Positions 39,601 through 42,600 of a stretch of 64,000 bases of DNA are shown here, one piece after another. This stretch comes from Centroberyx gerrardi. Taxonomy: Eukaryota; Chordata; Actinopteri; Beryciformes; Berycidae. Within the stretch, counting starts at the first letter, position 1; each line of letters opens with the position of its first letter. The notes beneath the pieces are model-generated. The model was not told the origin of the DNA and did not search any database. It saw only the letters and a list, made by a program, of their open reading frames with translations. The translations under genes and the position numbers were made by a program. The stretch lies in contig NC_135998.1 of assembly GCF_048128805.1 (NCBI RefSeq), positions 15,351,656 through 15,415,655 of the forward strand, given 5' to 3'.

Positions 39601-42600
39601 GGATGAGGTTCGGACCTCTTCATCTTCTTCGTCCTCTTCATCATCATCTTCTGATGAAGACGCAGTGGAGGCAGAGACCAAGGCACCCAGCACCCCTGCA
39701 GGGCCGGCCCCAGAGGATGAGGAGGACCAGAGACCCAGGGAGGGGCTCAGTAGCAAGCCCAAACACAGAGCTCCTAGTCCTGAGGAAGAAGGAGCGGATA
39801 CTGGGCATAGCAGTCTGGAGGACCAGAAGCCACCGTCGCCTAAAGGAGTCCCAGGTTGGTGTCTGCTCCTAATTCTATACTGTTCAGGTTAACTGTAAAT
39901 TATTTTTGTTCTAGCATTTCAGCTAAATGTATTGTCATTGTTTATTTTCAAGTACTGATGTCAGAGGTTAAATAGGATTATGAATAATATCTTGGTTGTC
40001 TTTCAGTTGAAGAGCCAGACGTGACTGCAGATGGCAGCGTTTCTCTAGTGAAGTCTGAGCCTCAGGAGCAAGCCAGGACCCTTCGGCCGCCGACCCCGAC
40101 CGGCTCCCCGCCTGAGAGTGACCAGGACACACAAGCCAAGAGTCAAGCAGAGCACGAGGAAATGCCCTCCACCCCTAGTCGAACAGCCCCGTCCCACCCA
40201 GATCCAGACGCACCTGTCCCTAAATCGCTCTCCACGCCTCTCATGCACCTCCCTCTCCCCCCTCACCCGACTATGGAAGGACGTTCCCTCCTCCTGCCGC
40301 CCCCCGGCCCCCTGCCCGACCTCCCCCAGCGGCCCAGGCTCCCCACAGATGAGGACATCCCCCGCACACCTGGCAGGGACCTGATGGACCGGGCCCGGAG
40401 TCTGGGCAAGTCCCAGAGCACAGATACGGTCCCCATCACACCTGGAAGTGATGCCCCGCTGACGGGCAGCAGCCTGTTACTCAGCTCCCCTCACATCCCC
40501 GGCAGCCCCTTTTCCTATCCCGCCCAGTCTCCTGTCCTGAGTGCTGGTGTCCCCCGCACCCCAGGCAGAGACCTGACCTTCACCCCCGTCTTCCCTGACC
40601 CCACAGCCCCCACCATTCATAGGAAACCATCCTCCGAGAGCCTGGATGATAGGCCAGTTTTTAAGGAGCCGCCCATCAGCACCCTGCCCAACCAGGCCCT
40701 GTCAGCTGGCACCCAAGACCCAACCAGTCTCACCGAAGATCTGCCCGCTGTCCTAGCTGTAGATCTCCCGGTGCCATCTGACACCGCCCCACCCAAGAGG
40801 AAGCCGGGTCGGCCCAAGGGCAAAAAGACCCCTGCTGTCCCCCCACCTGTTGAGTCTTTGGAGCTCTCGTCTGCCCCCACCCCTCTGCCTCATGACGCTC
40901 ATCTCAGAGATCATTCTGTGTCTGCCAAGTCCCCTGACGTCTCCACCCACCCCAGCCTGGACTTCCGGGAAGGAGAGGTGGAGCCTCAGACGGTCCTGCC
41001 TGCAGAAGACGGCTTCCTGCCGTATGAAGAAGCAGCGCCTGCGGTTGTCAAGCCGGCTCGGAGGGCGCGGCGAGGCTGGGAGGAGCTGCTGCTGGGCAGC
41101 TTGTCCCCCGTCACCACGTCTCCCCGGTCCTACTTCACCCCGCGCTCAGAGTTTGAGGAGATGACCATCCTGTACGACATCTGGAATGACGGCATAGATG
41201 AGGAAGACATACGCCTCCTGCAGATCACCTATGACAAGATGCTCCAGCAGGATAATGGGAATGACTGGCTCAACGACACCCTCTGGGTCAACCACCCTCA
41301 TATCCTTTACTGCTAGCCCTCTACTTAGTTTACACATGTAGTCCTATTAATCTGCTTTCTTAATAGCTTCACTTTCTACTGTGTGTATCGAATAGTTAGC
41401 ACCCTCTGCTGGCAATAATGGGGAATTATTTGGCTGTATATTATTGTTAGAATTAAGAAGCTAAGACCAGCTGAAGTAGCCTAATATCTGTTTAGCTTCA
41501 AAACTGTTTTGGCAGTCCACTATCCAAAGCCTCCTGGTCTTTCCTTGACTTCCCTGCACAAACCAACATCCCAGGAGTGAAGCGAAAGAGGAGAGACGAC
41601 GGCATGAGGGACCATATGACTGGCTGCGCACGTAGTGAGGGATACTACAAGATCGACAAGAAGGACAAGATCAAGTACCTTCAGAGCACACGGCTGCTGT
41701 CAGAGGAGCCACCAGTTGACACGCAGGTAGGCTACAGATCGTGGTGCTGGAGTTCGATACAGCAGCGGTTCTCAGTCCTGGTCCTCAGGGCCCAGGAACT
41801 AATAGGGATGCCAGGTGAAAGCAATTAACTGCAATTAACTGCCTGGTATGATGAAAACCAGAAGTTGGTGATGCACGCACACACACACACACTTAAATTT
41901 AAACACACACACACTTAAATTTAAGTGTGTGTATCAGGGGCATAATTTAGTTAAACATTTAATGTAAAGAAGTAAATGTAAAAATGTAAATCGGACAAAA
42001 CTGATTCAGAATCAGTATTAATAATACAGTATGGGAAATGTAATGGTAATTTTCTAAATATGTAGTGGTAGCAACGCAAAGTGTTTTGAGATAAAAATCG
42101 ACTCAGTCTACAAGGGAACGTGATGAATCTCTTCACTCTGTGTGCATGAACATGTTAAATTGCCGTAGGTTAATAGAATCTGTCTCGACTGAATATTTTC
42201 TCTCTTTAGGGTATGAGTATTCCCGCGCAAGTACACGCCTCCACCAGAGCCGGCTCTGAGCGGCGGTCAGAACAGCGCCGTCTGCTGTCCTCCTTCGCTT
42301 GTGACAGTGACCTACTAAAGTTCAACCAGCTGAAGGTGAGCAAAGTTAAACAGAACCTGTTCGAGTTTCAATATAGTCGCCGATGCAAGGTGTCGATGCA
42401 GAGATTCAAGCAGGCTGCATAGCTCATAAACGGGGTCATCGGGGTCTTGTGAACTTGTAACCTTGCGGGTTTCCTTAGACAGACAGATGCCGTTCTCCTT
42501 TTTTTGCACAGCATTTACACATGTAGACAACAAACTCCCCTGCTACTTAAATGTGACATGTTTTGTTTTTCTTTCCCACTATTCCCCCAGTTCCGTAAGA

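What the first reader, a model, noticed from the sequence alone, without database searches (positions are those of the whole stretch)
41300..41559. Minor-spliceosome (U12, AT-AC) intron in setd1b just before the Win motif
The intron starts ATATCCTTT, contains TTCCTTGAC 11 bases before its end, and ends in AC. All three match U12 AT-AC consensus. Every other intron I traced in setd1b is GT-AG. Using these borders fixes the reading frame (C|AA gives Gln) and yields seven residues between HP and the basic KRKRRDD segment, the same number as in human SETD1B as I recall it. A gene finder restricted to GT-AG would stop at 41314 and lose the Win and SET domains, so the locus is easily mis-annotated. 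Production of full H3K4 methyltransferase would depend on the minor spliceosome.
Basis: partly seen in the sequence, partly recalled or inferred. Interest (0 to 1): 0.78.

Follow-up and report, generated by a model that had tools for sequence, protein, structure and literature searches.

The report
Conserved minor-spliceosome intron in fish setd1b
A fish gene for a histone-marking enzyme (setd1b) holds one rare AT-AC intron of the type removed by the cell's minor splicing machine; traces of the same intron show in SETD1B proteins from fish to mammals, so it looks real and old, but it is of a well-known kind.

Summary
My hand-made setd1b model (17 coding exons, 30975..43399, 1818 aa, no internal stop) has 15 GT-AG introns and one AT-AC intron, 41300..41559 (260 nt, phase 1), with ATATCCTTT, TTCCTTGAC (branch A 11 nt before the last base) and a GCAC end. 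Of 106 open-frame splice pairs tried nearby, 41299/41560 scores best against the Toxotes protein. Among 196 listed relatives, 149 carry the predicted join. Of the other 37 that keep ...WV-x-HP, 36 continue H/Y/D-I-L, as N|ATATCCTT would if translated by mistake. Seven rows carry the translated branch-point end, two of them among those 36. These rows include mammals, birds, reptiles, a frog, sturgeon, bowfin and teleosts. Three proteins from contigs too short to hold the introns show the join. So this is very probably a genuine U12-type AT-AC intron shared by bony-vertebrate SETD1B genes and often mis-annotated. The mammalian ortholog is probably in U12 catalogues, which I could not open. Dependence on the minor spliceosome, and on CENATAC, is inferred. 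Interest is modest.

The parts
30975..43399 (+). setd1b coding region, 17 coding exons, 1818 aa plus stop (SETD1B-A ortholog)
   Evidence: spliced by hand, frame open throughout; RRM_1, N-SET and SET; best listed relative SETD1B-A of Toxotes jaculatrix, 98% over the last 319 aa
40007..41299 (+). coding exon 12, ends ...WVNHP + C (phase 1)
41300..41559 (+). intron 12: U12-type AT-AC intron, 260 nt
41300..41308 (+). U12-type AT-AC 5' splice site ATATCCTTT
   Evidence: same ATATCCTTTA start in the human SMYD2 U12-type intron printed in PMC7367187 (passage)
41314..41316 (+). in-frame TAG met if the intron is retained (protein would end ...NHPHILYC after 1582 aa)
41541..41549 (+). branch-point sequence TTCCTTGAC, branch A at 41548
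   Evidence: TTCCTTGAC also in the human SMYD2 U12-type intron in PMC7367187 (passage)
41558..41559 (+). AC 3' splice site (GCAC|AAACC)
41560..41726 (+). coding exon 13, AA|ACC AAC ATC ... = (Q)[13 protein letters not shown], carries the Win segment
41622..41648 (+). Win-motif segment GCARSEGYY (name of the motif from the finding and recall)
41167..42329 (+). N-SET domain (residues 1534-1673), interrupted by introns 12 and 13
   Evidence: PF11764; genome coordinates worked out by me from the exon table
42636..43330 (+). SET domain (residues 1691-1796), interrupted by introns 15 and 16
   Evidence: PF00856; genome coordinates worked out by me from the exon tables
41287..41288 (+). cryptic GT (TGG|GTCAAC), the donor of all three open-frame GT-AG alternatives found; it would delete VNHP. 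Models of some relatives look as if they used it (NDTLW-FFLD..., NDTLW-KKKR...), which is inference

Best explanation
Intron 12 of this fish setd1b gene is a genuine U12-type AT-AC (A-type minor) intron, orthologous to an intron at the same codon of SETD1B in other bony vertebrates. The U11/U12 di-snRNP recognises ATATCCTTT and TTCCTTGAC together, and the intron is cut out from 41300 to 41559, giving [19 protein letters not shown]. If it is retained, the frame stops five codons in (HILYC*), before the rest of N-SET, the Win segment and SET, so full-length enzyme needs minor-spliceosome splicing. Shown here: the sequence, the frame, that this pair beats the other open pairs tried, the join in relatives, apparent translated intron ends in relatives, and spliced short contigs of other species with the join. 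Inferred: the machinery, CENATAC dependence, and decay of the retained form.
For: 1) U12 AT-AC signals exactly at an exon border, branch A 11 nt from the end; optimum 11-13 nt by PMC3584512 (passages). 2) Of 106 open-frame pairs tried it scores best against the Toxotes protein P0001 (481; next 469; best of three GT-AG 430). 3) 149 of 196 listed relatives carry the canonical join. 4) A split not based on the expected remnant: 186 of 196 keep NDTLWV-x-HP; 149 of these have T or S as second residue after HP, 37 do not, and of those 37, 36 read H (21), Y (12) or D (3) followed by I-L; the other is P0085 (DQH). The first codon base fits the canonical residue of the same species where both forms are listed: Labrus bergylta D/A (G), Cyprinus and Sinocyclocheilus H/P (C); Pelodiscus Y/S fits if S is TCN. 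5) Seven rows carry L-[D/N]-x-x-A-P, the translated branch-point end at constant spacing. In Periophthalmus the junction residue is T (ACN, P0039) in one model and P (CCN, P0080) in the read-through model, so that intron would end in C. 6) P0029, P0035 and P0172 come from contigs of at most 3743, 5494 and 6068 nt, while their coding sequence alone takes 3297, 5253 and 5943 nt. The stretch matching P0029 spans 6289 nt and 11 introns in the window. All three carry the join.
Against: No RNA of this species was available. Remnants are read through degenerate codons (I-L fits ATH YTN/TTR, not only ATC CTT). Rows are not independent (isoforms, close species) and are only the top 120 of each of three lists. 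47 of 196 rows depart from the canonical join: 36 intron-start remnants (2 with both ends), 5 with only the intron end, and 6 with frame breaks or skips (P0085, P0087, P0121, P0162, P0195, P0196). The fourth residue of the 36 remnants fits the window's TAC (Y) in 17; S 11, L 4, F 3, H 1 differ after the conserved part. The stretch between branch point and AC is pyrimidine-rich (TTCCCTGC). No genomic DNA of relatives was available.
Confidence: 0.95

Rival explanations
1. The real intron is GT-AG (U2-type), using the cryptic donor TGG|GT at 41287 and an AG acceptor (for example ending at 41495).
For: Some models of relatives look like such patches, e.g. P0075, P0078, P0195, P0196.
Against: Only three open-frame GT-AG pairs exist in the range tried; all delete the conserved VNHP; best score 430 against 481. 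Myripristis and Periophthalmus have both a patched model and a canonical one (P0078/P0044, P0080/P0039). Spliced short contigs of other species carry the canonical join.
Confidence: 0.02
2. The intron has AT-AC ends but is removed by the major (U2) spliceosome, or it ends at another AC or AG.
For: Major AT-AC introns exist: PMC8280824 tested 85 major AT-AC introns or related subtypes (passage).
Against: The start is ATATCCTTT with a full U12 branch-point sequence 11 nt from the end. Major AT-AC introns start ATAAGT-like (recalled). Other AT-AC or AT-AG ends in frame score lower and add or delete residues.
Confidence: 0.03
3. There is an additional exon inside 41300..41559.
For: 41496-41559 is open in the frame of exon 13, and some relatives' models translate the matching end (seven rows).
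Against: 149 of 196 rows have linkers of 7-11 residues with no such insert. The translated ends read as branch point plus GCNC, as intron read-through would.
Confidence: 0.01

Closest known systems
U12-type (minor) introns, AT-AC subtype, e.g. the human SMYD2 intron (ATATCCTTTA...TTTCCTTGACT...GCAC) printed in PMC7367187
   Same: Same first ten intron bases, same TTCCTTGAC core, same GCAC end, phase 1 (passage).
   Different: Another gene and another place in the protein; no orthology claimed.
A-type (AT-AN) minor introns that need CENATAC, PMC8280824
   Same: End dinucleotides and U12 signals put this intron in that class; 92% of A-type introns there showed retention or alternative sites on CENATAC depletion (passages).
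   Different: SETD1 does not occur in the main text of that paper (0 occurrences); its datasets could not be read.
SETD1B intron at the same codon in other bony vertebrates
   Same: Same position and phase and, by apparent translated remnants, an ATAT[ACT]-type start in mammals, birds, reptiles, a frog, sturgeon, bowfin and teleosts.
   Different: The linker after the join is 3 residues longer in the listed cyprinids and several other ostariophysans. Their genomic introns were not seen.

Membership tests
U12-type AT-AC intron | 5' splice site ATATCCTTT | tested here: met
   exact at 41300-41308
U12-type AT-AC intron | branch-point sequence TTCCTTRAC | tested here: met
   TTCCTTGAC at 41541-41549
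U12-type AT-AC intron | short branch-point to 3' splice site distance, optimum 11-13 nt | tested here: met
   11 nt from A41548 to 41559; range from PMC3584512 passages
U12-type AT-AC intron | AC at the 3' end, keeping the frame | tested here: met
   best of 106 open-frame pairs
U12-type AT-AC intron | no distinct polypyrimidine tract | tested here: inconclusive
   TTCCCTGC between branch point and AC is pyrimidine-rich but short
U12-type AT-AC intron | conserved position and type in orthologs | tested here: met
   36 of the 37 rows that keep HP but lack the canonical second residue read [HYD]-I-L, among 196 listed proteins; indirect, from proteins only
U12-type AT-AC intron | spliced in RNA at these borders | tested here: inconclusive
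   three spliced short contigs of other species carry the join; no reads of this species
U12-type AT-AC intron | removal needs the minor spliceosome (and CENATAC for A-type) | not testable with these tools
   needs mutant or depletion RNA-seq
SETD1B (SET1/COMPASS H3K4 methyltransferase) | RRM, N-SET and SET domains and SETD1B best hits | tested here: met
   PF00076, PF11764, PF00856 above cut-off; named best hits are SETD1B-A
SETD1B (SET1/COMPASS H3K4 methyltransferase) | H3K4 methyltransferase activity | not testable with these tools
   no assay possible

The most novel reading that the evidence does not exclude
SETD1B has kept this AT-AC minor intron since the bony-vertebrate ancestor because its slow, CENATAC-dependent removal limits production of the full-length H3K4 methyltransferase: retention stops translation at once (HILYC*), just before the Win and SET domains. 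Minor-spliceosome diseases would then include a SETD1B-deficiency component.
Probability: 0.2. Interest if true: 0.6.

Novelty: new member of a known kind. Interest (0 to 1): 0.35.

Why it matters
It puts a broad H3K4 methyltransferase gene among the genes with an A-type minor intron, so its output should fall when U12, U6atac, RNPC3 or CENATAC fails, which is directly testable in existing mutants. It also shows a recurrent annotation fault: 47 of the 196 listed SETD1B proteins depart from the canonical join at this junction.

Tried and rejected
Rejected: GT-AG alternatives, other AT-AC or AT-AG ends and an internal exon. Not used as evidence: single-motif counts, at chance level in 64 kb. My first count of intron-start remnants used a pattern that itself asked for I in second place, so its 36 of 36 was partly circular; one search replaces it with a split that does not ask for it (36 of 37). 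That pattern set had also missed one canonical row (P0186), corrected. Rfam scan of the window: no match at gathering thresholds. PDB sequence search: 113 sequences matched, 60 shown, best stretches start at residue 130 of the query segment or later, so none of those shown covers the junction.

Literature (held open library only): searches pairing SETD1 names with minor-intron terms listed no paper that, by title or abstract, treats this intron. Co-mentions were two reviews (PMC7464941, passages read, unrelated; PMC12701963, listing only), a database paper (PMC4864242, listing only) and, papers with at most a single 'U12' (PMC7556509, PMC6868398, listing only). Passages only, no setd1 in the main text: PMC8280824, PMC9501576, PMC7367187, PMC12332006. 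PMC3584512: passages. PMC2200798: passages; it says zebrafish gene structures were drawn with reference to the GT-AG rule. Supplementary tables, U12DB and IAOD could not be opened, so I do not claim that the intron is uncatalogued. SETD1A and invertebrate Set1 were not searched: the three protein searches went to SETD1B.

Full report
What is there. The + strand of the window holds a complete setd1b coding region. I spliced 17 coding exons by hand from 30975 to 43399; the frame is open and gives 1818 aa. Pfam finds RRM_1 in the first 200 residues and N-SET and SET at the C-terminus, each above its cut-off. The best listed relative over the last 319 residues is SETD1B-A of the fish Toxotes jaculatrix at 98%. 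An Orai-1 family exon and a MORN-repeat exon lie upstream, which fits the human ORAI1-MORN3-...-SETD1B neighbourhood (recalled).

The intron. In this model 15 of the 16 introns are GT-AG. Intron 12, 41300..41559, starts ATATCCTTT, has TTCCTTGAC at 41541-41549 and ends GCAC. The branch adenosine at 41548 is 11 nt from the last intron base; a review gives an optimum of 11-13 nt (PMC3584512, passages). The human SMYD2 U12-type intron printed in PMC7367187 has the same start, the same branch-point core and a GCAC end (passage). AT-AC makes up 22% of U12-type introns of Danio rerio in that paper's table, so the subtype is not rare within the class.

Chance. In 64 kb either motif alone is expected between one and two times on both strands. 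The ordered triple of donor, branch point and AC occurred in 1 of 400 simulated first-order Markov sequences on one strand. Here it also sits exactly where the reading frame needs it.

Alternatives. I enumerated donor/acceptor pairs (GT-AG, GC-AG, AT-AC, AT-AG, GT-AC) around the site that keep the frame open through exon 13: 106 pairs. The AT-AC pair 41299/41560 scores best against the Toxotes protein (481). The next is 469. Only three pairs are GT-AG; the best of them scores 430 and loses VNHP.

Relatives. Three protein searches brought 196 distinct proteins, the top 120 of each list (1645, 239 and 330 proteins passed the threshold). Isoforms and close species are separate rows, so rows are not independent, and proteins without the C-terminal region could not be listed. 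Of the 196, 186 keep NDTLWV-x-HP. In 149 of these the second residue after HP is T or S, the canonical exon-13 start; the linker is 7 residues in 118, 10 in 29, 8 in 1, 11 in 1. In the remaining 37 the next residues are HIL (21), YIL (12), DIL (3) and DQH (1, P0085). The ten without NDTLWV-x-HP are five with a translated intron end (P0075, P0078, P0079, P0080, P0084) and five others (P0087, P0121, P0162, P0195, P0196).

What the mis-annotations show. H, Y or D followed by I-L is what C, T or G|AT ATC CTT gives when a gene finder reads into the intron. The 36 rows include Sphaeramia, Cyclopterus, Pogonophryne, Dissostichus, Labrus, Hucho, Salmo, Cyprinus, Sinocyclocheilus, Pygocentrus, Aldrovandia, Anguilla, Amia, Acipenser, the frog Discoglossus, Pelodiscus, Sphenodon, Podarcis, Phrynosoma, several birds, the squirrel monkey Saimiri and the bat Saccopteryx (names; junctions). 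Where a species also has a canonical model the first codon base fits: Labrus bergylta D/A (G), Cyprinus and Sinocyclocheilus H/P (C), and Pelodiscus Y/S if S is TCN. Seven rows carry the translated 3' end, L-[D/N]-x-x-A-P, before the exon-13 residues (two of them, P0088 and P0090, also carry the start); the window reads L-D-F-P-A-Q there. In Periophthalmus the junction residue is T in one model (P0039) and P in the read-through model (P0080), which requires that intron's last base to be C. All this is inference through degenerate codons, but it agrees across lineages.

RNA. P0029, P0035 and P0172 come from contigs of at most 3743, 5494 and 6068 nt, while their coding sequence alone takes 3297, 5253 and 5943 nt. 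The stretch matching P0029 covers 6289 nt and 11 introns in the window. Such contigs must be spliced, and all three carry the canonical join. This supports the join in relatives, not in this species. The source tag lgn is not explained by the tool; I take it for read assemblies.

Mechanism. Recognition by U11/U12 and removal by the minor spliceosome follow from established knowledge of U12-type introns. A-type minor introns depend on CENATAC (92% affected on depletion) and have relatively high basal retention, by PMC8280824 (passages); SETD1 is not named in its main text. If retained, this intron stops the frame after HILYC, giving 1582 aa without the rest of N-SET, the Win segment and SET. 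Decay of such RNA is inferred.

Verdict. The finding is right. It is a new member of a known kind; the mammalian ortholog is probably already in U12 catalogues, which I could not open. The added value is the trace of the intron across bony vertebrates and the evidence of recurrent mis-annotation.

Noticed in passing
P0067, P0069, P0076, P0088, P0090, P0093, P0099 and 29 further listed proteins: Database SETD1B proteins appear to carry translated AT-AC intron sequence (HIL, YIL, DIL) after HP at the exon 12/13 junction; 47 of 196 listed rows depart from the canonical join in one way or another.
   Followed up: yes
window 3910-4488 (+) and 7263-7562 (-): An Orai-1 family exon (PF07856) and a MORN-repeat exon (PF02493) upstream of setd1b, as in the vertebrate ORAI1-MORN3-SETD1B neighbourhood (recalled).
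   Followed up: partly
window 49520-49843 (-): A eukaryotic-type carbonic anhydrase exon (PF00194) on the minus strand; neighbouring open frames at 48894-50230 look like further exons by eye.
   Followed up: partly
window 59191-59433 (-) and 62448-62675 (-): A C-type lectin-like exon (PF00059, barely above cut-off) and an LDL-receptor class A exon (PF00057); the order resembles DGCR2/IDD (name recalled, not tested).
   Followed up: partly
29 listed relatives, e.g. P0091, P0092, P0094-P0098, P0118, P0128-P0130: The linker after the join is 10 instead of 7 residues, in cyprinids and several other ostariophysans: a lineage-specific lengthening at the exon 13 start.
   Followed up: no
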